Source: Agrobacterium tumefaciens
Lineage (GTDB): Bacteria > Pseudomonadota > Alphaproteobacteria > Rhizobiales > Rhizobiaceae
Direction of reading: 5' to 3'
Assembly (NCBI GenBank): GCA_025559845.1
Contig: CP048470.1
Location: 162,001-226,000 of the forward strand
Length of the DNA stretch: 64,000 nt
The notes under the pieces: model-generated
Told to the model about the DNA's origin: nothing
Databases searched by the model: none
Seen by the model: the letters and a program-made list of their open reading frames with translations, nothing else
Made by a program: the position numbers and the translations under genes
In this document: positions 43,656 to 58,392 of the stretch, piece after piece
How the letters are laid out: every line of letters starts with the position of its first letter
Numbering within the stretch: the first letter of the stretch is position 1

Positions 43656-44681
43656 TTAAGACGGGCGCATCAGGTAATGACCGACACCCCAGACATTGCC
43701 GTTCTCATGACCGAACAATCCGGCCGTCGCAAGGAAGAACAGTCGCCACCGGCGGTTCCAGAGTACAGCGTCTTCGCCGTAGGTTTTATTCAGTATTGGC
43801 TCGATCTGCGCTGCTTTTCGATCGAAATTCTCAAGCCAGTGCAGCGCTGTGCGTTGATAGTGGACACCAGACCAGCGCCACTCTTCCTCGACGCGAAAGA
43901 GATCGCCAAACCGGCGCGGCAGATCGAAAGCGGGCATGATACCGCCTGTGAAAAAGTGGCGAGCGATCCAGTCTGCGGGATTGTTATGGTCGAACCGGTA
44001 GGACCGATTTCTATGGTTGAAGACGTGAAGGAAGAACTTGCCCTCCGGCTTCAGCCAGCCATGGACCCGTTCGAACAACGCCCGCCAGTTCGACATATGT
44101 TCGAACATCTCGACCGAGACGACCCGATCGAATTTTCCCTCTGTTGCAAAGTCATTCATATCGGCCGTCACCACGGAAAGATTTGACAGCCCGCGTGCCG
44201 CGGCGAGGTCGAGGATGTATCGACGCTGAGATTTGGAATTCGAGACAGATGTGATGCGCGCATTTGGATAGCGGGCAGCTATGTAAAGCGACAGCGAGCC
44301 CCATCCACATCCAAGCTCCAGGATATCCATGCCGTCAGCGAGACCGGCGTGATCCACGGTCTCTGCCAGCGCCGCAATTTCAGCTCCGCCAAGGCTGGTT
44401 GTCTCATCGGCATAGAAGCAGCAGGAATATTTGCGATGCGTGCCGAGGACTAGCGAAAAGAACTCCGGCGGGACCTCATAATGCTGCCGGTTCGCGTCAT
44501 TGGTATGGGTCGCGACAGGAAAGCCTGCCATGCCGGCAACAAAAGCAGCTTCGGCTTCGGGAGAAATACGGGCAAGCCTTCGCTTCGTTCTTGCACAGAG
44601 ATAATCTATTCCGGCAAGCGTCACGCTATCACTTAAGGGGGCGCGTTCAGCAGCGTTGATGGCAAAGGCAAGCATGTTCAT
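43656..44681 (-). CDS. Cyclopropane-fatty-acid-synthase-like SAM methyltransferase (short form)
   Basis: A 341-residue methyltransferase with SAM motif I 'LELGCGWGSLSLYIAARYP' (121-139). Residues equivalent to the bicarbonate/active-site set of E. coli Cfa are kept: a cysteine in 'YSCC' (87/88), E194 in 'MFEHM', and H219 in 'FLHVF'. It is shorter at the N-terminus than Cfa (about 380 residues). It overlaps the DUF1295 gene (ATGA) and belongs to the divergent half of the ECF-sigma cluster. The substrate is probably an unsaturated acyl chain of a phospholipid; the product may be a methylated or cyclopropane chain. Confidence 0.82.
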   Translation of the reverse strand: MNMLAFAINAAERAPLSDSVTLAGIDYLCARTKRRLARISPEAEAAFVAGMAGFPVATHTNDANRQHYEVPPEFFSLVLGTHRKYSCCFYADETTSLGGAEIAALAETVDHAGLADGMDILELGCGWGSLSLYIAARYPNARITSVSNSKSQRRYILDLAAARGLSNLSVVTADMNDFATEGKFDRVVSVEMFEHMSNWRALFERVHGWLKPEGKFFLHVFNHRNRSYRFDHNNPADWIARHFFTGGIMPAFDLPRRFGDLFRVEEEWRWSGVHYQRTALHWLENFDRKAAQIEPILNKTYGEDAVLWNRRWRLFFLATAGLFGHENGNVWGVGHYLMRPS

Positions 44682-45469
44682 GGACGACCTCCGGTCTTGC
44701 GTGGTCCAGGGAAAAAGGCATTCACACGACTTTGCAGGTCACGGAACCTGGTGCCGCGGGATTTCAGCATATGCTCCTCCAGAGGCGGGATGCCGGAAAC
44801 ATGGACCAGCAGCCAGTACATCATCAAAGGAGCGACGAGCGAAAGCCATGACAACGGCAAAGCACCGACTGCCAGAAGCGGGAAACTGCACCAGAACAAC
44901 CATTCAAAAAAGTAGTTTGGATGTCGGGAATACCGCCAGAAGCCAGTCTCGCATATCTCGGTTTTTGCCTGCGGTGTTTTCTTGAAAGCCGATAGCTGGG
45001 CATCGGATGAAGCTTCGCCGGCCACTGCGAATGCTCCGATCAGCAGCGCGGTGATATCGATGAGCCGCGGAAATGCAGCTGTGTTTGAAGCAGCGAGGTA
45101 GACCGCAAGAACCAGGACGAAGGCAGCCAGCGCCTGCACCTGCAGGAAAAAGAAGAGCCGCATGCTGGCTTTCTCGCCCCACTCCTCCAGCAAACGTGCA
45201 TAACGTGGATCTTCGCCACCGCCGCTGGTGCGCGTGCCGATGTGACTTGCGAGCCTTAAGGACCAGACAATCACGAGCGCAAGAACAGCGAAATTTCGCC
45301 AGTCCGCACCTTCTGCAAGAACAGCAGCCACAGCACCCGCGAGACCAACGCCGGCAGACCAGATTGTGTCAATCCAGCCGCTTGAGCCTGTGACCCGTTG
45401 AACCGAGAATGCCGCCGCCATGAGAAGCGACAGGAATATCGCGAGAGATGCCAGTACCTGCCAATCCAT
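44678..45469 (-). CDS. DUF1295 membrane protein (steroid 5-alpha-reductase-like fold)
   Basis: A 263-residue inner-membrane protein with about six or seven helices and the conserved C-terminal segment 'FWRYSRHPNYFFEWLFWCSF', typical of DUF1295 and related reductases or methyltransferases that act on lipid-like substrates. It is the first gene leftward from the divergent control region at 45470-45659 and overlaps the methyltransferase gene. In this setting it probably reduces or alters an acyl chain together with it. Confidence 0.88.
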   Translation of the reverse strand: MDWQVLASLAIFLSLLMAAAFSVQRVTGSSGWIDTIWSAGVGLAGAVAAVLAEGADWRNFAVLALVIVWSLRLASHIGTRTSGGGEDPRYARLLEEWGEKASMRLFFFLQVQALAAFVLVLAVYLAASNTAAFPRLIDITALLIGAFAVAGEASSDAQLSAFKKTPQAKTEICETGFWRYSRHPNYFFEWLFWCSFPLLAVGALPLSWLSLVAPLMMYWLLVHVSGIPPLEEHMLKSRGTRFRDLQSRVNAFFPGPRKTGGRP

Positions 45470-45659
45470 TCCTTCACCACTCTACTTGAGAGCACTCGAT
45501 ACCGCGATGAGTGCAACAAATACGGGAATGGGCGCTAACAGGTTTCAGGCAGCGCGAAAAAAAACAAAAAACGTTCCGGCCCATGAAACTCATCAGACCG
45601 GTTCCTCGTAGTTGTTCTTGCATATGCGCAAACACTTTATGCGTGACCAAGAGGACCCC

Positions 45660-47033
45660 ATGACCGAAACTGGAACGTCCGATCAGAAACGAGGCCTTAA
45701 AATAGCGGTCATCGGTACGGGTATCTCCGGCCTCTCTGCCGCGTGGCTGCTCTCCAAACGTCACCAGGTGACGGTGTTTGAGGCCGCGAGCCGGATCGGC
45801 GGCCACAGCAACACTGTTGATTTCGAAAGTGTGAGTGGCCCGGTTTCGGTCGACACAGGCTTTATTGTCTACAATGAGGTGACCTATCCCAATCTGACGG
45901 CTCTTTTCAAAGAACTCGACGTCCCAACGACGGCATCCAACATGTCCTTTGCCGTATCACTGAACGAAGGTGCGTTCGAATATGCAGGCGGAACCCGTTT
46001 TGGGCTCTTCGCACAAAAGAGCAATTTGCTGCGGCCACGGTTCTGGAACATGCTGGCAGATCTCTTGCGGTTTTACCGCGATGCCCCAGGCGACCTGCCA
46101 GAGATGGGCAATATGTCAATCGACGAGTATCTCACACGCCATCGATATGGCTCTGCATTTCGTGATGATCATCTCTATCCGATGGCAGCTGCCATATGGT
46201 CTACACCTGCGATGGACGTCGGGCGCTACCCGGCAGCGCAGTTCGTGAAGTTCTGCCACAACCACGGCCTGCTTTTGCTGCGCAACCGCCCCCAGTGGCG
46301 CACTGTTACCGGTGGAAGTCGCGAGTATGTCAGACGCATCACCACGGGTTTTAGTGACAGGATCCGGCTGTCGACCCGTGTGACGGAGATCCGCCGGACA
46401 CCGGATGGTATTGCGATAACAGACGGTTTCGGACGAAAACATCAATTCGACGACGTGGTGATCGCAACCCATGCGGACCAGGCACTTGAGATGCTGTCGG
46501 ATGCCACACACGCGGAAAAGAACATTCTTGGGGCCTTCAGCTACACAAAAAACCGCGCGGTTCTTCACACGGACGCGGACCTGATGCCCAAGCGGCGGGC
46601 CGCGTGGTCGAGTTGGAATTACGTCACCCATACGAACAACACCAACCGCCAGCCGACCATCACCTACTGGATGAACAGGCTCCAACCTCTGGGCCACGCG
46701 CCCGAGACGTTCGTCACACTCAACCCCGTTCGCGAACCCTCTGCGCAGAGCATCGTTTGCGAAGAGATTTACGATCATCCCGTTTTCGATGAACACACCG
46801 AGCGCGCACAACGTCATTTGTGGGCTCTTCAGGGCTACCGGAACACGTGGTTCTGCGGCGCGTATTTCGGTTCCGGTTTTCATGAAGATGGCATTCAGGC
46901 AGGTCTTGCCGTCGCTGAAGACCTTGGCGGTATCAGACGCCCCTGGCAGGTTAAAAACGAAAGTAGCCGCATTGTCCGGCGTCCCCTTGCTGGAAGGCCA
47001 AACCGCGAGGAATGGATGGAGGCACCGGCATGA
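45660..47033 (+). CDS. FAD-dependent amine-oxidase-like oxidoreductase
   Basis: A 457-residue flavoprotein with the FAD-binding loop GTGISG (19-24) and 'VTVFEAASRIGGHSNTV' after it. It belongs to the NAD/FAD protein type that is regularly found next to DUF1365 and cyclopropane-synthase genes, so it probably desaturates or oxidises a membrane acyl chain. The ATG at 45660 is chosen (AGAGG about 6 bases ahead); earlier in-frame starts at 45612 (TTG), 45624 and 45639 (ATG) have poor sites. It overlaps DUF1365 by 4 bases. Confidence 0.85.
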   Translation: MTETGTSDQKRGLKIAVIGTGISGLSAAWLLSKRHQVTVFEAASRIGGHSNTVDFESVSGPVSVDTGFIVYNEVTYPNLTALFKELDVPTTASNMSFAVSLNEGAFEYAGGTRFGLFAQKSNLLRPRFWNMLADLLRFYRDAPGDLPEMGNMSIDEYLTRHRYGSAFRDDHLYPMAAAIWSTPAMDVGRYPAAQFVKFCHNHGLLLLRNRPQWRTVTGGSREYVRRITTGFSDRIRLSTRVTEIRRTPDGIAITDGFGRKHQFDDVVIATHADQALEMLSDATHAEKNILGAFSYTKNRAVLHTDADLMPKRRAAWSSWNYVTHTNNTNRQPTITYWMNRLQPLGHAPETFVTLNPVREPSAQSIVCEEIYDHPVFDEHTERAQRHLWALQGYRNTWFCGAYFGSGFHEDGIQAGLAVAEDLGGIRRPWQVKNESSRIVRRPLAGRPNREEWMEAPA

Positions 47034-47848
47034 ACGAGCCCCTCGCCTCAGCCATTTTTCCAGGACATGTCACGCATGTGCGGTTCAAACCCAGGGAACA
47101 CCGGCTTAGCTACCGGATTTACTCGCTCCTCATCGACCTCGATGAACTGGGCACACTCAACAGGCGTTTGAGGCTGTTCTCGGTTGACCGTTTCAATCTG
47201 TTTTCGTTCTTCCCTAAAGATCGAGGCGACAGAAGTGGCGATGACCTGCGCGGGCAGATCGAAAATGCAATGAAAGCGGCGGGTATTGAGCCAGACGGCG
47301 GACCCATCAGATTGCTGACCATGCCACGCCTCCTCGGCTGGTCTTTTAATCCACTTTCTGAGTTTTTCTGCTACAGGCGCGACGGTTCACTGGCCGCAAT
47401 TTTATGGGAGGTCGAGAACACCTTCGGTGAGCGTCATTCCTACCTCATCCCGGTTGAGACAGATAATGGCAACGACATCGTCCAACGCTGCGACAAACGG
47501 TTTTATGTCTCTCCCTTCATGGAGATGGATCTTCACTACACGTTTCATGTAAGCCCACCCGGTGAGACGCTTAAAATCCGTATCGACACCTTCGACGCTG
47601 AGGGAATTGTCCTGAGAGCGCGCCACCTAGCCCGCCGTGCGGCGCTGACAGATGGTGCTCTTTTGAGAGCGTTTTTCATGATCCCGTTTCTGACGCTAAA
47701 AGTCATCGGCGGCATTCACTGGGAAGCTTTGAAAATCTGGCTCAAAGGCGTGACGTTGAAGAAACGTCCTCCGCCTCCTCGAACCCCCATTTCCTTTATC
47801 CGCCCTTCACCAAACCAAACCGAGGCCAAAATCCATGACCCCGTTTGA
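47030..47848 (+). CDS. DUF1365-family protein
   Basis: A 272-residue protein with the family opening 'FPGHVTHVRFKPREHRLSY' and 'RLLGWSFNPLSEFFCY' in the middle. The biochemical role is unknown; genes of this family nearly always lie between an FAD oxidoreductase and a cyclopropane-synthase-like gene, as here, which suggests a step in acyl-chain modification. Start ATGA overlap with the preceding gene; its last 14 bases overlap the next gene. Confidence 0.88.
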   Translation: MNEPLASAIFPGHVTHVRFKPREHRLSYRIYSLLIDLDELGTLNRRLRLFSVDRFNLFSFFPKDRGDRSGDDLRGQIENAMKAAGIEPDGGPIRLLTMPRLLGWSFNPLSEFFCYRRDGSLAAILWEVENTFGERHSYLIPVETDNGNDIVQRCDKRFYVSPFMEMDLHYTFHVSPPGETLKIRIDTFDAEGIVLRARHLARRAALTDGALLRAFFMIPFLTLKVIGGIHWEALKIWLKGVTLKKRPPPPRTPISFIRPSPNQTEAKIHDPV

Positions 47849-49115
47849 AAACCTGACTGAAATTTCTGCTGCGAATCCAGCGAGCACACGGCCGATCGGC
47901 ATGGGTGGCTGGTTGATGAAGCGGCTCTTGAACAGGATTACCACTGGAAGATTGCGTGTCATCTTGCCGGATGGAGCATCAGTGGAAAAATGCGGTGAAA
48001 ACTCGGGTCAGGAGGCCACATTCATAATCCATCGCTGGCGCGCGCTGAGACGACTGGTGCTCAATGGTGATATCGGGTTCGCAGATGGTTACATAGCCGG
48101 CGACTGGTCTACCCCTGACCTCACGGCCCTCATCCGTTTTGCCGCCCAAAATCGCCAAGCACTACGCGGTTCAATGCGGGGCAGCCTGCCGATGCGCCTG
48201 GCAAACCGTCTCGCCCATAGTCTGAACGCCAATACCAAGAATGGCAGTAGACGGAATATCGAAGCGCACTATGACCTCGGCAACGAGTTTTATCGCCAGT
48301 GGCTCGACCCCTCGATGCTCTATTCTTCTGCCGTTTTTGACGAGACCACATCGACGCTGGAAGATGCCCAGGCCAACAAACTTCGGCGAATTACGGAAAA
48401 GCTTCACTTGTCCGGGGGCGAGACCATTCTTGAAATCGGTTGCGGATGGGGAGCGCTTGCGACGCACCTGGCACGCGAACATGACGCGAAGGTCACCGGT
48501 ATCACGCTTTCACCGTCACAACTGGCTTTTGCCAACGACGCCGTTACAAAAGCAGGTCAATCTGACCGCATTGATCTCAGGCTCCAGGATTATCGCGATA
48601 CACGTGGGCGTTTCGATCGCATCGTCTCAATCGAAATGTTCGAGGCTGTCGGCGAAGCCTACTGGCCGAGCTATTTCGAAACGCTGAAAAGGTGCCTGAA
48701 GCCTGGCGGTCGGGCGGTGCTGCAAGTGATCTCCATTGACGAAGATCGCTTTGAAACCTATCGGCGCAAGGCTGATTTCATCCAGCGCTATATTTTCCCT
48801 GGCGGCTTCCTTCCATCGCAGAACGCCATTGAGAAATCAGTCGAAAAATCAGGCCTAAAACTCTGTGAAAAGGAACTTTTTGGGCTTTCTTATGCACGAA
48901 CTTTGGCTGAATGGCGGCTCCGTTTTGATGCGAAATGGCAGACGATTGCGCTGCTCGGCTTCGATGATCGTTTCAGGCGTCTCTGGGACTATTATCTCTG
49001 CTACTGCGAAGCGGGTTTTGCAGAGGGAGCGATCGACGTCGGCTTTTACGTCATCGAGAACAGTGAGCGCTATCAGACTTCGTCAAGCGTTGAGCATGAG
49101 AGAGGCGTGTTATGA
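47835..49115 (+). CDS. Cyclopropane-fatty-acyl-phospholipid-synthase-like methyltransferase (long form)
   Basis: A 426-residue protein of Cfa length with an N-terminal lipid-binding part (to about 140) and a SAM domain ('LEIGCGWGALATHLA', 199-213). Two positions differ from E. coli Cfa: S165 replaces the active-site cysteine ('MLYSSAVF' against YSCA), and Q297 stands where a histidine is expected ('LQVIS'); E270 is kept. That points to a methyl transfer with another outcome, such as methylation of a dienyl or branched chain. It is coupled to DUF1365 before and DUF2147 after it. Confidence 0.85.
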   Translation: MTPFENLTEISAANPASTRPIGMGGWLMKRLLNRITTGRLRVILPDGASVEKCGENSGQEATFIIHRWRALRRLVLNGDIGFADGYIAGDWSTPDLTALIRFAAQNRQALRGSMRGSLPMRLANRLAHSLNANTKNGSRRNIEAHYDLGNEFYRQWLDPSMLYSSAVFDETTSTLEDAQANKLRRITEKLHLSGGETILEIGCGWGALATHLAREHDAKVTGITLSPSQLAFANDAVTKAGQSDRIDLRLQDYRDTRGRFDRIVSIEMFEAVGEAYWPSYFETLKRCLKPGGRAVLQVISIDEDRFETYRRKADFIQRYIFPGGFLPSQNAIEKSVEKSGLKLCEKELFGLSYARTLAEWRLRFDAKWQTIALLGFDDRFRRLWDYYLCYCEAGFAEGAIDVGFYVIENSERYQTSSSVEHERGVL

Positions 49116-49489
49116 AACGCGTTGTCGTGATGGGAACAGTTGCGATCCTGCTCGCGTCAGCCGCGACCAGCATCCATGCTGGTGAACTTGACGGAGATTG
49201 GGCGCGCGGCGATGGCAACGCCAAAGTCCGCATTGCTCCTTGCGGCGAAAATATCTGTGCCACCAACACCTGGATCAAGCCAGGAACACCTCGTGAAAAA
49301 GCAGGCGACCAGCTCATTATGGATATCAAGCCGGATGCCGCAGGCGGATATTCGGGAACTGCCTTCGATCCCCAGCGCGATAAATCCTACCGGCTATCCA
49401 TCACCATTTCAGGAAACAGCATGACGACAAAGGGCTGCATTGTCGCAGGACTTCTTTGCAAAGGGATCAATTGGACACGGATCGACTGA
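49112..49489 (+). CDS. DUF2147 secreted protein
   Basis: A 125-residue protein with a signal peptide (about 1-23, 'VAILLASAATSIHA') and the DUF2147 form: 'LDGDWARGDGNAKVRIAPCG', a paired cysteine pattern and 'SGTAFDPQRDKSY'. It is probably periplasmic and lipocalin-like. Its ATG overlaps the methyltransferase stop. Function unknown, but it is regularly associated with envelope-stress genes. Confidence 0.8.
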   Translation: MKRVVVMGTVAILLASAATSIHAGELDGDWARGDGNAKVRIAPCGENICATNTWIKPGTPREKAGDQLIMDIKPDAAGGYSGTAFDPQRDKSYRLSITISGNSMTTKGCIVAGLLCKGINWTRID

Positions 49490-49505
49490 ACGAAGGAGGA
49501 CAAGG

Positions 49506-49934
49506 ATGAAAACCGCTCTCGTAGCTTACGTGTCGACACTCATCGCCTTTCTGGTGATTGATTTCATCTGGCTTAGTGCCATGGCATCAAGGCTATACCG
49601 CCCGGCGATCGGCGACCTTTTGGCTGACACCTTCAGGGTCGGTCCGGCGATCGCATTTTATTTGATCTACGCCGCAGGCCTTGCTTTTCTCGCGGTAAAA
49701 CCGGCGCTGGTTTCAGGGCAGTGGAATACTGCCTTGCTTTACGGCGCCATTGTCGGGTTCATGGCCTATGCCACGTATGATTTGACCAATCAGGCAACGC
49801 TGAAAAGCTGGTCAACGACACTCACCCTCGCCGATCTGGCATGGGGAACGTTTGTCTCGGCAGCAGCTGCCACGATTTCCTATCTCATCACCATGCGCCT
49901 GGCCGCTCCAGATACAACTCCGGCAGGTCTATGA
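49506..49934 (+). CDS. DUF2177 membrane protein
   Basis: A 142-residue inner-membrane protein with four helices and the family signature 'FLVIDFIWLSAMASRLYRPAIG' at the start and 'YDLTNQATLKSWS' near the end. AGGAGG precedes the ATG. It is often found in clusters with ECF sigma factors and acyl-chain-modifying enzymes, as here. No reaction is known. Confidence 0.87.
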   Translation: MKTALVAYVSTLIAFLVIDFIWLSAMASRLYRPAIGDLLADTFRVGPAIAFYLIYAAGLAFLAVKPALVSGQWNTALLYGAIVGFMAYATYDLTNQATLKSWSTTLTLADLAWGTFVSAAAATISYLITMRLAAPDTTPAGL

Positions 49935-50059
49935 TGATAGAGGCGCTCCCGCTTTCATGGCCATTGTCCCCTTTCGCACGAAAGGGATGGGAGCTTACTT
50001 TACCCTCAACCTTGCTTTCGCGCCGGAATGAATTCTATAAAGGAAAAACAGCAGGGTAT

Positions 50060-50608
50060 ATGCGAATGCAGGGTAATGAGATCGCTACTCTTATCAACCG
50101 CGTCGGGATGGGCGATCGCGCAGCATTCGCGTCACTCTATCGAGCCACCAGTCCTCGGCTCTTTGCAATCTGCTTGAAAATCCTGCGCGACAAAACAGAT
50201 GCTGAAGAGGCTCTCCAGGAGATATATATCAAGGTGTGGCAGCGTGCCAAAACCTTCGCCGTCAGCGCCGGGACAGCTACAACCTGGCTGGCGACAATTG
50301 CGCGCAATCACGCGATAGACACGATAAGGGCGCGTAAACCTGAGGCCGACGACATCGATGAGGCCTACGATCTGGCAGACGATAGCATTCGCTCGCCCGA
50401 GCAACAGGTTGTTCTTGCGGATGAAGGGCGAAGGATTGACGATTGCATGCGGCAGCTGGACACCACACATGCGCAAGCCGTACGCCGCGCCTATGTCGAA
50501 GGATTGAGTTATCTCGAGCTTGCCGACGAATTACGGGTCCCGTTGAACACCGTCAGAACATGGCTGAGACGTAGCCTCCTTAAACTGAGGGAGTGCATGC
50601 AGCGATGA
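50060..50608 (+). CDS. ECF RNA polymerase sigma factor (SigK/RskA-partner type)
   Basis: A 182-residue sigma-70 protein with region 2 ('LYRATSPRLFAICLKILRD', about 28-46, and 'ATTWLATIARNHAIDTIR', about 75-92) and region 4 ('LSYLELADELRVPLNTVRTWL', about 149-169). The start is uncertain: ATG codons at 50060 and 50066 fit the family; an open frame reaches back to 49841. It overlaps the anti-sigma gene (ATGA). It likely drives the divergent lipid-modification genes and itself when the membrane is stressed. Confidence 0.9.
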   Translation: MRMQGNEIATLINRVGMGDRAAFASLYRATSPRLFAICLKILRDKTDAEEALQEIYIKVWQRAKTFAVSAGTATTWLATIARNHAIDTIRARKPEADDIDEAYDLADDSIRSPEQQVVLADEGRRIDDCMRQLDTTHAQAVRRAYVEGLSYLELADELRVPLNTVRTWLRRSLLKLRECMQR

Positions 50609-51315
50609 GCGAGGGATCACACAGCGGCGGTATGGGATCGCGCGACGAAATCCTCGCCGGAGAATACGTTCTTGGGGTCCTGCCGTTTGCGACGCGTCGC
50701 GCGCTCGAAGAGCGGATGAAGGAAGACAAGGCGTTTGCGCACCTCGTTGAGCGCTGGCAGCAGGAACTCGCTTCTTTCAACGATGAGTATCTGGAAGAGA
50801 TGCCAGACGCCGCGATTTTCGCGCGCATCGAGGCACGCCTCTTTGGCTCGAAAGAAGAGGCCGTCAAGCAAGGTCTATGGAACTCGATCCGGTTCTGGCG
50901 CTGGACTGCGCTCGGGACTGGCGCGCTTGCCGTGGTTGCGTTGGCTCTTGCTGTATTGCCTGTCATTCAACCCAAACCGACAGCGCTCGTGGCAGAACTC
51001 GCGACGACCGACAGTCAGGTTAATCTCCTTGCCTCTTACGATGCTGAGAGCGGGCGAATGCGCATCGTGCCTGTTGCGGTCGGCAAACCGGACGAGAAGT
51101 CGCTGGAACTCTGGCTTGTTCAGAAGAATGGCTCCACTCGCTCGCTTGGTGTGTTCCAGCCCGGCGCGAGTGGTGACCTGATCATCCCGGCTGACATGCG
51201 TTCCGACATCGCAGAAGGCACAACTTTTGCAGTGAGTGTGGAGCCGTTCGGCGGTTCGCCAACCGGTCAGGCCACCGGTCCGGTTATTGCTGTGGGTACG
51301 GCTCGTCATCTATAG
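50605..51315 (+). CDS. Anti-sigma factor, RskA type
   Basis: A 236-residue protein. It has a cytoplasmic sigma-binding part (1-95, 'LAGEYVLGVLPFATRRALEE'), one membrane helix (about 99-119) and a periplasmic RskA domain ('LELWLVQKNGSTRSLGVF'). No zinc-binding His/Cys set of the ChrR or ZAS type is seen. It holds the preceding sigma factor inactive at the membrane until a signal, probably through proteolysis, releases it. Start chosen at the ATGA overlap. Confidence 0.9.
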   Translation: MSEGSHSGGMGSRDEILAGEYVLGVLPFATRRALEERMKEDKAFAHLVERWQQELASFNDEYLEEMPDAAIFARIEARLFGSKEEAVKQGLWNSIRFWRWTALGTGALAVVALALAVLPVIQPKPTALVAELATTDSQVNLLASYDAESGRMRIVPVAVGKPDEKSLELWLVQKNGSTRSLGVFQPGASGDLIIPADMRSDIAEGTTFAVSVEPFGGSPTGQATGPVIAVGTARHL

Positions 51316-56681: not shown

Positions 56682-57506
56682 CTAACCGCCGAACCCGCGG
56701 GCAAATGCACCACCACCGATGATGCGGCGCGCGAAGATGAGGGCGACGAATGATGGGACCCAGAGCAGGACCGAAAGAACGGCGCCATACTGGATGACCA
56801 TCTGATTGTTGATGTAGCTGATCATCAGCACCGGCATGGTGCGGATAGCTGGAGCACCAATCAGCCAGGCGCCTTCGGTTTCATAAAACGTCCCGACAAA
56901 GCTGAGGAGAATAGCGGCAGCAATGGTAGGACCTGCCTGCGGAAGGGTAATCGACCAGAAGACCCGCAACGGGCTGGCGCCAACATCACGCGCAGCCTCC
57001 TCCATACGCCGATCGACCGCCTGAAACGCCGCAACCGGTATCCAGATCATGAACATCAGCGTACCGACGAGCTGGATGAGGACCACGCCCCAGAACGTTC
57101 CAATCAAATTGAGCTGCAGAAAAGTGGCTGCAATCGCGACGAGTAGACCGAATTTCGGGAATGCGTGGCCGGCGAGAAACGAGAAGAACAGGATGTCGCG
57201 ACCTGGAAACTGCATGCGTGCAAAGGCGTAGGCAGCAGGAAGGCAGATCAACGCAGACAGAAGCGTTACGACTGTGGACAATTGCAGGCTGAGGGTCAGC
57301 GCATTCCAGACATCGGGGCGCCCGAGAGTTTGTCCCCAGAAGCGGAAACCGAATTGCTGCGGAACGATGTTGGGATACCGCCAGACCTCGGTGAAGGCCC
57401 AGGTACCGACAACAAGAAGAGGCCCAACGATGACCAGGGTCAAAACGGTCGCAAATAGAAACCCAGACCAGTCAACATGGCGGCGCGTGGGAGCTAAAGT
57501 CGACAT
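56682..57506 (-). CDS. ABC transporter permease (PotC/FbpB class)
   Basis: A 274-residue, six-helix permease with the EAA loop at 'MEEAARDVGASPLRVFWSITLP'. The ATG at 57506 begins one base after the stop of the partner permease; an in-frame start at 57581 would lie inside that gene and is not used. It forms the membrane channel with the protein encoded at 57508-58392. Confidence 0.9.
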   Translation of the reverse strand: MSTLAPTRRHVDWSGFLFATVLTLVIVGPLLVVGTWAFTEVWRYPNIVPQQFGFRFWGQTLGRPDVWNALTLSLQLSTVVTLLSALICLPAAYAFARMQFPGRDILFFSFLAGHAFPKFGLLVAIAATFLQLNLIGTFWGVVLIQLVGTLMFMIWIPVAAFQAVDRRMEEAARDVGASPLRVFWSITLPQAGPTIAAAILLSFVGTFYETEGAWLIGAPAIRTMPVLMISYINNQMVIQYGAVLSVLLWVPSFVALIFARRIIGGGAFARGFGG

Positions 57507-57507
57507 C

Positions 57508-58392
57508 TCATTCCCCCCGATTACGCGCCACGGAGCGTACATAAAAAAGGCCGAACAGGATGCAGAACCCAAAGGCAACAACAGCCTGGGTCATAGCACC
57601 TATGGGATCCTGAACATCGCGGAGCGTGCGTTGCATGAAAGGTCCAATCATCTCGGGCGACGCGGGGCCAAGTAGATAGGGCAGCGTGAATGAGGAAAAG
57701 ATCCCCAGCACCGAAAAGGAAAGAGCGACGAGAATGGAGTTGGAAATTTTCGGCAAGATGATGTGCCAAAAGACGCGCAATGCGTTTGCACCAACATCGC
57801 GTGCGGCTTCGATCGACTGATTTGCGACGCTACCCAGACCGGAAAGCAGGATTAGGACAGTCAGTGGAATATTGTCCCAGACAAGACCGATCACCGGCCC
57901 CCATGGTGTGAGATAGGGCGTTCGGATCTTGGGTAGTCCTACGGCATTCAAGACAATGTCGAGCATTCCGTTCGGCCCGAGGACACGGATGAATGCAAAC
58001 GCCAGAATGATCGATGGAACGAACATCGGCAAAATGGCGAGCGCCTGAACGTAGGCGGGCAAGCGACCGTGCGAAAAGCGCAGATAAAGCGCAATCGGAA
58101 GGCAGATCACCAGCAACAGCAGCGCACAGACGAGCGTGGTCCAGAGTGTTACGACGAGATTGTCGAGGCTGTAGCGGTCCGAAAAGAAGAATGCATAGCT
58201 TGAAAGGTCAAAGCCTACTCGCCCATCCGCGTTTGTGCGCCAGACTGTGCGACTGATGGCATTGATCGCTGGCCAGATAACAAGCCAGATCACCAGAAAG
58301 ACTGGTATGGCGACGAGCAGGAGACCAATCGGCCTCCTGCTTGCTGCCGTGTGTTCAAGCGGTGTGTCCGCTTCGTCGAGCGCCTGTGTCAC
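57508..58392 (-). CDS. ABC transporter permease (PotB/FbpB class)
   Basis: A 294-residue, six-helix permease with the EAA loop at 'SIEAARDVGANALRVFWHIILP'. It overlaps the stop of the receptor gene (ATGA). The order receptor-permease-permease-ATPase is complete in this operon. Confidence 0.93.
   Translation of the reverse strand: MTQALDEADTPLEHTAASRRPIGLLLVAIPVFLVIWLVIWPAINAISRTVWRTNADGRVGFDLSSYAFFFSDRYSLDNLVVTLWTTLVCALLLLVICLPIALYLRFSHGRLPAYVQALAILPMFVPSIILAFAFIRVLGPNGMLDIVLNAVGLPKIRTPYLTPWGPVIGLVWDNIPLTVLILLSGLGSVANQSIEAARDVGANALRVFWHIILPKISNSILVALSFSVLGIFSSFTLPYLLGPASPEMIGPFMQRTLRDVQDPIGAMTQAVVAFGFCILFGLFYVRSVARNRGE

What the first reader, a model, noticed from the sequence alone, without database searches (positions are those of the whole stretch)
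43656..51315. ECF sigma/RskA-linked cluster with two unlike cyclopropane-synthase paralogs
Two divergent arms encode a short Cfa-like enzyme plus DUF1295, and an FAD oxidoreductase, DUF1365, long Cfa-like enzyme, DUF2147, DUF2177, sigma factor and anti-sigma factor. Similar sets are controlled by RpoE-ChrR in photosynthetic alphaproteobacteria during singlet-oxygen stress, and Cfa-like enzymes of that kind take part in furan fatty acid synthesis. Here the sensor is an RskA-type membrane anti-sigma factor, not a zinc ChrR, so the input signal must differ.
Basis: partly seen in the sequence, partly recalled or inferred. Interest (0 to 1): 0.7.

Follow-up and report, generated by a model that had tools for sequence, protein, structure and literature searches.

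The report
Furan-lipid genes under a swapped regulator
A set of genes that probably makes antioxidant furan lipids, in a bacterium probably of the Agrobacterium group, is wired to the type of stress switch known from tuberculosis bacteria instead of the light-stress switch its relatives use, which gives a concrete way to find out what that switch senses.

Summary
In detail: nine genes in two divergent arms, 43656-51315, in the same order in 16 of 16 same-genus relatives examined. The long arm is ufaD-ufaO-ufaM (monomethyl furan fatty acid pathway) plus DUF2147, DUF2177, sigma and anti-sigma. The short Cfa-like enzyme is most likely FufM, the furan methylase, beside DUF1295. The sigma is SigK-like with both SigK cysteines; its partner is RskA. 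Both arms carry TGAAAC-N17-CGTA in 19 of 19 SigK-linked clusters of the genus and 0 of 16 ChrR-linked ones. The motif also precedes fasciclin in 12 of 15 SigK-RskA-fasciclin cassettes of sister species. Two Rhizobium plasmids carry the block with sigma-ChrR in the same slot: the regulator was exchanged in place. Against: two ChrR-flanked blocks keep SigK-type promoters. A Tsukamurella plasmid carries a like ufa-sigK-rskA run. Product and signal are inferred, not measured.

The parts
43656..44681 (-). cfaS, FufM-like SAM-dependent methyltransferase (CMAS family, 341 aa)
   Evidence: Pfam CMAS 146 bits; 57-58% identity over 340 aa to the divergent CMAS paralogue of two Rhodopseudomonas genomes, which also follows a DUF1295 gene
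44678..45469 (-). DUF1295 membrane protein, overlapping the start of cfaS
   Evidence: Pfam DUF1295 244 bits
45521..45547 (-). predicted SigK promoter of the left arm, TGAAAC-N17-CGTA
   Evidence: footprint in the alignment of 17 loci; pattern pair in 19 of 19 genomes; 0 of 20000 shuffles hold sites on both strands
45584..45610 (+). predicted SigK promoter of the right arm, TGAAAC-N17-CGTA
   Evidence: as above
45660..47033 (+). UfaD-like FAD-dependent fatty acyl desaturase (457 aa)
   Evidence: Pfam Amino_oxidase 88 bits; an FAD gene of this kind lies in 79 of 80 class-wide DUF1365 loci
47030..47848 (+). UfaO-like DUF1365 protein
   Evidence: Pfam DUF1365 262 bits
47835..49115 (+). cfaL, UfaM-like methyltransferase (426 aa)
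   Evidence: Pfam CMAS 291 bits; 48% identity over 369 aa to the Rhodopseudomonas CMAS that follows DUF1365
49112..49489 (+). DUF2147 protein
   Evidence: Pfam 56 bits
49506..49934 (+). DUF2177 membrane protein
   Evidence: Pfam 150 bits
50012..50041 (+). possible housekeeping promoter of the sigma gene (TTGCTT-N18-TATAAA)
   Evidence: both boxes lie in conserved columns of the alignment of 17 loci; reading as a housekeeping promoter is inference
50066..50608 (+). SigK-like ECF sigma factor (180 aa)
   Evidence: best solved structure M. tuberculosis SigK 106.6 bits, next R. sphaeroides RpoE 74.7; both SigK cysteines present
50605..51315 (+). RskA-type membrane anti-sigma factor (236 aa)
   Evidence: Pfam RskA_C 77.8 bits; no cysteine in the sequence

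Best explanation
This is a SigK-RskA-controlled furan fatty acid cluster. In unstressed cells RskA holds the SigK-like sigma at the membrane. A stress that reaches the envelope or its lipids, most likely photo-oxidative (singlet oxygen type), leads to release of SigK, helped or tuned by its cysteine pair. SigK then starts transcription at the two divergent TGAAAC-N17-CGTA promoters. The right arm makes UfaM, UfaD and UfaO, which convert cis-vaccenoyl chains of phospholipids to a monomethyl furan fatty acid; the left arm makes FufM, which adds the second methyl group to give a dimethyl furan fatty acid that scavenges oxidants in the membrane. Read-through into sigK-rskA adds feedback, and a conserved housekeeping-type promoter supplies a basal level. 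The SigK-RskA pair took the place that sigma-ChrR holds in the same block of other Rhizobiaceae. Shown here: gene content, conservation, family assignments, the promoter motif and its co-distribution with SigK. Inferred: enzyme activities, the stress signal, the release step, the direction of the exchange.
For: Gene order ufaD-ufaO-ufaM as in R. palustris RPA2571-2569; FufM assignment by identity, DUF1295 neighbour and elimination. SigK cysteine pair in 47 of 47 SigK-type rows and 0 of 12 ECF11-type rows. Divergent TGAAAC-N17-CGTA pair in 19 of 19 SigK blocks of the genus, [TC]GAAAC-N17-CGTA pair in 3 of 3 SigK blocks outside it, none in 16 ChrR clusters of the genus, and a site in 1 of 36 and 0 of 32 ChrR loci elsewhere. 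The same motif precedes fasciclin in 12 of 15 SigK-RskA-fasciclin cassettes, with CGTC for CGTA in the other 3, and a relocated membrane-protein gene in 6 of the 6 SigK-block genomes that hold it. Whole-genome search found ChrR in 0 of 11 SigK-block genomes and 12 of 12 ChrR-cluster genomes of the genus; 8 SigK-block genomes were not searched. Same block with ChrR in the slot in R. tropici and, reduced, in R. johnstonii. Shared physiology: R. capsulatus SigK/RskA-like pair induced by singlet oxygen, and a fasciclin in the R. sphaeroides RpoE regulon.
Against: No expression or lipid data. Of 7 same-type blocks with ChrR beside them, 2 (R. tropici L169 and L243) keep CGAAAC-N17-CGTA in both arms and a third (L255) in one arm; L243's genome holds an RskA and a sigK in two pieces elsewhere, but the R. 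tropici chromosome could not be searched, so promoter and neighbouring regulator do not always match. Five more distant RskA-linked clusters (L180, L187, L245, L248, L253) and one with both regulators (L230) show no such motif (0 of 6), while 3 of 85 loci with neither regulator do. Genome-wide the motif is barely commoner outside the cluster (47 hits) than its reversed control (37) in 19 genomes. In M. tuberculosis reducing conditions release SigK and oxidation stabilises the complex (PMC7509140 passage), which does not fit simple oxidant sensing.
Confidence: 0.7

Rival explanations
1. The SigK-RskA swap did rewire the input: the cluster now answers envelope damage, thiol redox state or another cue, not singlet oxygen, so the lipids serve another stress.
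For: RskA has an RskA_C domain and no zinc or cupin site, so the sensing part is physically different from ChrR; SigK stimuli are called obscure in PMC9861118 (passage); the cysteine pair answers reducing conditions in M. tuberculosis.
Against: R. capsulatus SigK/RskA-like pair is singlet-oxygen-induced; homologues of SigK targets, mpk83 and mpk70, are light-induced in M. kansasii; fasciclin and ufa genes belong to RpoE regulons too.
Confidence: 0.35
2. The enzymes make cyclopropane or methyl-branched fatty acids (tuberculostearic type) and not furans; the FAD protein and DUF1365 act elsewhere.
For: Both Cfa-like proteins are CMAS family; the M. tuberculosis protein Rv0447c is described as a potential tuberculostearic-acid methyltransferase (title in a reference list, PMC10956863).
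Against: UfaD and UfaO catalyse the two steps that follow methylation on the way to the furan (PMC7380195); the genome holds a separate, more typical Cfa at C1:471092; FufM acts on furan chains and not on 18:1.
Confidence: 0.2
3. The sigma pair is only a neighbour; the block is run by another factor and SigK-RskA serves fasciclin or other genes.
For: In sister species SigK-RskA sits with a fasciclin gene and not with ufa genes (15 of 15 loci); R. tropici keeps the motif beside ChrR.
Against: The fasciclin and ufa promoters share one motif, absent from the 16 ChrR-run clusters of the genus; the pair closes the operon in 19 of 19.
Confidence: 0.1

Closest known systems
RpoE-ChrR (ECF11) singlet-oxygen regulon with ufaD-ufaO and ufaM, Rhodobacter sphaeroides and Rhizobiaceae
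   Same: Same structural genes; in R. tropici and (reduced) R. johnstonii the same block with the sigma pair in the same place
   Different: Sigma is SigK-like with a cysteine pair, anti-sigma is RskA without zinc or cupin domain, promoters TGAAAC-N17-CGTA instead of TGATC type
SigK-RskA (ECF18/19) of Mycobacterium, Yersinia and Tsukamurella
   Same: Sigma and anti-sigma families, cysteine pair; the Tsukamurella plasmid has FAD, DUF1365, CMAS, lipocalin, sigK, RskA in one run
   Different: Here the block has a second divergent arm with a FufM-like enzyme, plus DUF2147 and DUF2177; the mycobacterial promoter motif was not compared
UfaM-UfaD-UfaO-FufM pathway of Rhodopseudomonas palustris (PMC7380195)
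   Same: All four enzyme families; ufaD-ufaO-ufaM order; a FufM-like gene behind DUF1295 in two Rhodopseudomonas genomes
   Different: In those two genomes no ufa gene was found near the fufM-like gene (L215, L216); here it shares a promoter region with ufaD
Chlamydomonas SAK1 singlet-oxygen genes (PMC4067076, passages)
   Same: Two Cfa genes (one also named coclaurine N-methyltransferase, the nearest solved-structure family of cfaS), DUF1365, DUF1295, DUF2177 and a fasciclin-like gene need SAK1 for induction
   Different: A eukaryote with an unrelated regulator
R. capsulatus rpoE-chrR (PMC7074977, passages)
   Same: A SigK/RskA-like pair in place of RpoE-ChrR in an alphaproteobacterium, already noted in print
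   Different: No homologues of ufaD and ufaO there (RSP_1091, RSP_1090); here the lipid genes stay and the promoters differ too

Membership tests
SigK-RskA (ECF18/19) pair | Sigma nearest to SigK | tested here: met
   106.6 bits to SigK 4nqw, 74.7 to RpoE 2q1z; the formal ECF classifier was not available
SigK-RskA (ECF18/19) pair | Cysteines matching SigK C133 and C183 | tested here: met
   aligned; 47 of 47 SigK-type rows, 0 of 12 ECF11-type
SigK-RskA (ECF18/19) pair | Adjacent anti-sigma with RskA_C domain | tested here: met
   77.8 bits, cut-off 29.4
SigK-RskA (ECF18/19) pair | Fasciclin (MPT83 type) target | tested here: inconclusive
   no fasciclin hit in the window; present beside the related pair in 15 of 15 sister loci
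RpoE-ChrR (ECF11) | Zinc and cupin anti-sigma ChrR | tested here: not met
   no cupin match in the window protein; no ChrR match in G000 at E 1e-8
RpoE-ChrR (ECF11) | TGATC-type promoter | tested here: not met
   both arms carry TGAAAC-N17-CGTA; the motif scan of the same region listed no TGATC site
UfaM-UfaD-UfaO furan pathway | FAD, DUF1365 and CMAS genes in one operon | tested here: met
UfaM-UfaD-UfaO furan pathway | Furan fatty acid product | not testable with these tools
   needs GC-MS
FufM | Orthologue of RPA0924 | tested here: inconclusive
   57-58% identity to the divergent CMAS of two Rhodopseudomonas genomes, each with three strong CMAS genes; CGA009 itself was not examined
FufM | Methylates monomethyl furan chains | not testable with these tools
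   enzyme assay needed

The most novel reading that the evidence does not exclude
SigK-RskA and RpoE-ChrR are interchangeable drivers of one old regulon, furan fatty acids plus fasciclin, that defends membranes against photo-oxidation; the unknown signal of SigK-RskA, in mycobacteria too, is then singlet oxygen or the lipid oxidation it causes, and the ufa-like operon next to mycobacterial sigK is a furan or related oxidant-scavenging lipid pathway.
Probability: 0.35. Interest if true: 0.8.

Novelty: new variant of a known kind. Interest (0 to 1): 0.62.

Why it matters
The stimulus of SigK-RskA is called obscure (PMC9861118, passage). Here the pair runs a block whose chemistry and inducer are known in relatives, so the stimulus can be tested in a laboratory plant bacterium. 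It also shows a natural exchange of a sigma/anti-sigma pair that goes with a different promoter type, and it joins the mono- and dimethyl furan enzymes in one regulatory unit.

Tried and rejected
Rejected: that the pair is a ChrR variant (no zinc or cupin match, no cysteine). Rejected: a large regulon (47 motif hits outside the cluster against 37 for the reversed control in 19 genomes). Rejected: counting motif hits inside coding sequence; inside the sigma genes of L050-L061 a run CGAAACTTTT...CGTA recurs and by my reading just encodes a conserved stretch. Considered and not settled: which way the exchange went; in the tree ufa-linked SigKs lie among fasciclin-linked ones, but the deciding fork is not starred. 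Led nowhere: passages of the S. meliloti ECF survey searched for this cluster, RskA against solved structures (only chance-level matches), and paper searches for a SigK-run furan cluster in Agrobacterium or Rhizobium: none of the papers listed is about one, judging by titles and abstracts, nor are the 20 shown of 4,530. The 2008 paper on SigK regulon evolution, seen only in a reference list, was not read.
Full report
WHAT IS THERE. The right arm overlaps gene to gene (ufaD-like FAD protein, DUF1365, long Cfa, DUF2147), then come DUF2177, sigma and anti-sigma; the left arm is DUF1295 followed by the short Cfa. An RskA search of 61 genomes found 16 same-genus relatives at 67-70% identity; 16 of 16 have all nine genes in the same order. 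The genus is probably Agrobacterium in the GTDB sense: one relative (G006) has contigs of 2,841,580 and 2,075,577 bases, which I recall as the A. fabrum C58 chromosomes; no call names it.

ENZYMES. In the R. sphaeroides/R. palustris work (PMC7380195; passages) UfaM is a Cfa-like methylase, UfaD an FAD-type desaturase, UfaO a DUF1365 protein, and FufM (RPA0924) a further methylase, 26% identical to UfaM, that makes the dimethyl furan. The window's right arm has the R. palustris order ufaD-ufaO-ufaM. cfaL is 48% identical over 369 residues to the Rhodopseudomonas CMAS that follows DUF1365. cfaS is 57-58% identical over 340 residues to another Rhodopseudomonas CMAS that directly follows a DUF1295 gene. 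The two Rhodopseudomonas genomes each hold three strong CMAS genes (136 bits or more) and weaker hits of 46 bits or less: the DUF1365-linked one, a more typical Cfa, and this divergent one, so by elimination it should be FufM. The window genome also has three strong ones (146 bits or more): cfaL, cfaS and a separate Cfa at C1:471092. CGA009 itself was not examined. The nearest solved structures of cfaS are plant N-methyltransferases, coclaurine N-methyltransferase first, and one of the two Chlamydomonas singlet-oxygen-induced Cfa genes also bears that name (PMC4067076 passages).

SIGMA AND ANTI-SIGMA. Sequence comparison with solved structures ranks M. tuberculosis SigK first (106.6 bits) and R. 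sphaeroides RpoE second (74.7). Both SigK cysteines align. In a set of 59 sigma rows (58 different) the pair is present in 47 of 47 SigK-type rows and 0 of 12 ECF11-type rows. The anti-sigma has an RskA_C domain and no cysteine. PMC7509140 (passages and section 11) reports that SigK-RskA also works in Yersinia, that RskA both inhibits and activates, and that the cysteines are needed for activity.

PROMOTERS. Alignment of the divergent intergenic region of 17 loci shows TGAAAC-N17-CGTA on both strands. In 16 of 16 relatives the two motifs start 61-63 bases apart; shuffling the window region 20,000 times gave no case with sites on both strands and 44 with any site, spacers 16-18 allowed. A pattern search found the pair in 19 of 19 SigK-block genomes. 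Outside the genus, R. lusitanum 629, Neorhizobium sp. EC2-8 and N. alkalisoli have the same block with SigK-RskA and [TC]GAAAC-N17-CGTA in both arms. Each window motif ends about 50 bases before its start codon. I recall that Bacillus SigW promoters look alike; that was not tested.

THE EXCHANGE. Of 39 genomes of the genus, 35 have one DUF1365 gene: 19 in the SigK block and 16 in a different ufa cluster run by ECF11 sigma and ChrR. A whole-genome ChrR search at E 1e-8 covered 25 genomes of the genus: 0 of 11 SigK-block genomes, 12 of 12 ChrR-cluster genomes and 0 of the 2 others had it; 8 SigK-block genomes were not searched. The 16 ChrR clusters have no [TC]GAAAC-N16-18-CGTA site upstream of the FAD gene (0 of 16), and 13 of 16 have a TGATC-N-CGTA site on the sigma-chrR side, none on the FAD side. 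Annotated plasmids of R. tropici CIAT 899 and R. johnstonii 3841 carry the block with sigma and ChrR where the window has SigK and RskA; in R. johnstonii it is reduced. In a class-wide sample, 93 of 190 genomes had DUF1365 (the window's own among them); loci of 80 were fetched, the weakest-scoring 12 and the own genome not. RskA: 0 of 80; ChrR: 32 of 80, cut-off 60 bits. Upstream of FAD, DUF1295 or cfaS, [TC]GAAAC-N17-CGTA occurs in 1 of 36 and 0 of 32 ChrR loci, 1 of 6 RskA loci (L212), 0 of 1 with both, and 3 of 85 loci with neither (L120, L177, L216); TGATC-type sites occur in 24 of 36 and 17 of 32 ChrR loci, 0 of 7 with RskA, and 7 of 85 with neither.

RESULTS THAT DO NOT FIT NEATLY. Seven blocks of the window's type have ChrR beside them (L169, L172, L242, L243, L255, L256, L258). 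Two (R. tropici L169, L243) have CGAAAC-N17-CGTA in both arms and L255 in one; L172 and L258 read CAAAAC and AAAAAC; L242 has GGAAAC in one arm; L256 has a TGATC site in one arm. In L172, L256 and L258 a TGATCC-N-CGTA site lies just before the ECF11 sigma gene. L243's genome keeps an RskA with a sigK in two pieces, and the Brucella rhizosphaerae genome behind L242 keeps SigK-RskA with a fasciclin elsewhere, so SigK may act in trans there; for R. tropici this could not be checked. The RskA-linked clusters of Novosphingobium rosa (two), Caulobacter, Brevundimonas and a Caulobacterales bin lack the motif, so their promoters are unknown.

INDEPENDENT SIGNS THAT THE MOTIF BELONGS TO SIGK. In 15 of 15 loci of the genus where SigK-RskA relatives stand without ufa genes (L047-L061; one of these genomes, G019, also has the ufa block), a fasciclin gene follows; 12 of 15 have TGAAAC-N17-CGTA before it and 3 have TGAAAC-N17-CGTC. 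A membrane protein whose homologues lie in 32 of 80 cfaS loci stands away from the block in 6 of the 19 SigK-block genomes (in G004 and G035 about 9 kb away; the other 13 had no match); 6 of 6 keep the motif upstream (five stretches read, G035 by coordinates only). In G034, which has no DUF1365 gene, the box reads TGAAGC and that gene is in two pieces. In the 15 ChrR-cluster genomes that hold the gene it follows, read by eye, a cfaS-like frame, and 0 of 15 stretches show the motif. In G005, G006 and G026 the motif stands before a second fasciclin gene with its own sigma-RskA pair; G036 has it at a like distance from its RskA hit, not fetched. The motif is not enriched much genome-wide (47 outside hits, 37 in the reversed control), which points to a small regulon.

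SIGNAL. The inference that the input must differ is not forced. PMC7074977 (passages) reports that R. capsulatus RpoE and ChrR are closer to SigK (34%) and RskA (25%) than to the R. sphaeroides proteins, that both genes are induced by singlet oxygen, and raises horizontal transfer; its table of the R. sphaeroides RpoE regulon includes a fasciclin (RSP_1409). PMC9861118 (passages) shows light induction of mpk83 and mpk70, homologues of SigK targets with putative SigK sites, and calls the SigK stimuli obscure. PMC10949492 (passages) cites fasciclin under RpoE-ChrR in Azospirillum. PMC4067076 (passages) lists CFA1, CFA2, DUF1365, DUF1295, DUF2177 and a fasciclin-like gene as needing SAK1 for singlet-oxygen induction in an alga. 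A Tsukamurella plasmid carries FAD, DUF1365, CMAS, lipocalin, sigK and RskA in one run; of three actinobacterial loci viewed, 1 had the sigma pair adjacent. That the M. tuberculosis sigK operon has the same genes (Rv0449c to Rv0446c) is recalled; PMC7509140 says sigK is autoregulated from the Rv0449c promoter, and PMC9909702 lists rv0449c in the sigK regulon (passages).

VERDICT. A real, conserved cluster: most likely mono- and dimethyl furan fatty acid synthesis under SigK-RskA, a regulatory variant of the known RpoE-ChrR arrangement. Regulation is well supported by comparison; product and stimulus are inferred.

Noticed in passing
L300:2453-2830 (G000:C1 about 57,450-57,830): A short RskA-like protein of 125 aa that matches only the N-terminal half of the window RskA, has no Pfam match, and no ECF sigma hit within the 5 kb fetched; hits of this kind (query residues about 14-120) are in 37 of 37 genomes of the genus.
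   Followed up: partly
L289, L290, L291, L293: A second, divergent sigma-RskA pair with a fasciclin gene (MPT83-type cassette); in L289-L291 a TGAAAC-N17-CGTA motif precedes the fasciclin, in the window genome (L293) none was found.
   Followed up: partly
L230 (Bosea bin): One ufa cluster with both an ECF11 sigma-ChrR pair and a second sigma-RskA pair in the stretch.
   Followed up: no
L172, L258: R. johnstonii and R. leguminosarum plasmids keep the block but with no DUF1365 hit, and with the long Cfa reduced to a weak hit (L172) or not found (L258).
   Followed up: no
L170, L171: In Neorhizobium sp. EC2-8 (long Cfa, DUF2147, sigma) and R. lusitanum 629 (DUF1365) some genes of the block fall into two reading frames; sequencing error or decay, not resolved.
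   Followed up: no
L292 (G000:C2:1214571-1214597, minus strand): TGAAAC-N17-CGTA upstream of a frame that reads like an alpha/beta hydrolase (by eye) in the window genome; G251 (same species) has a near-identical motif.
   Followed up: partly
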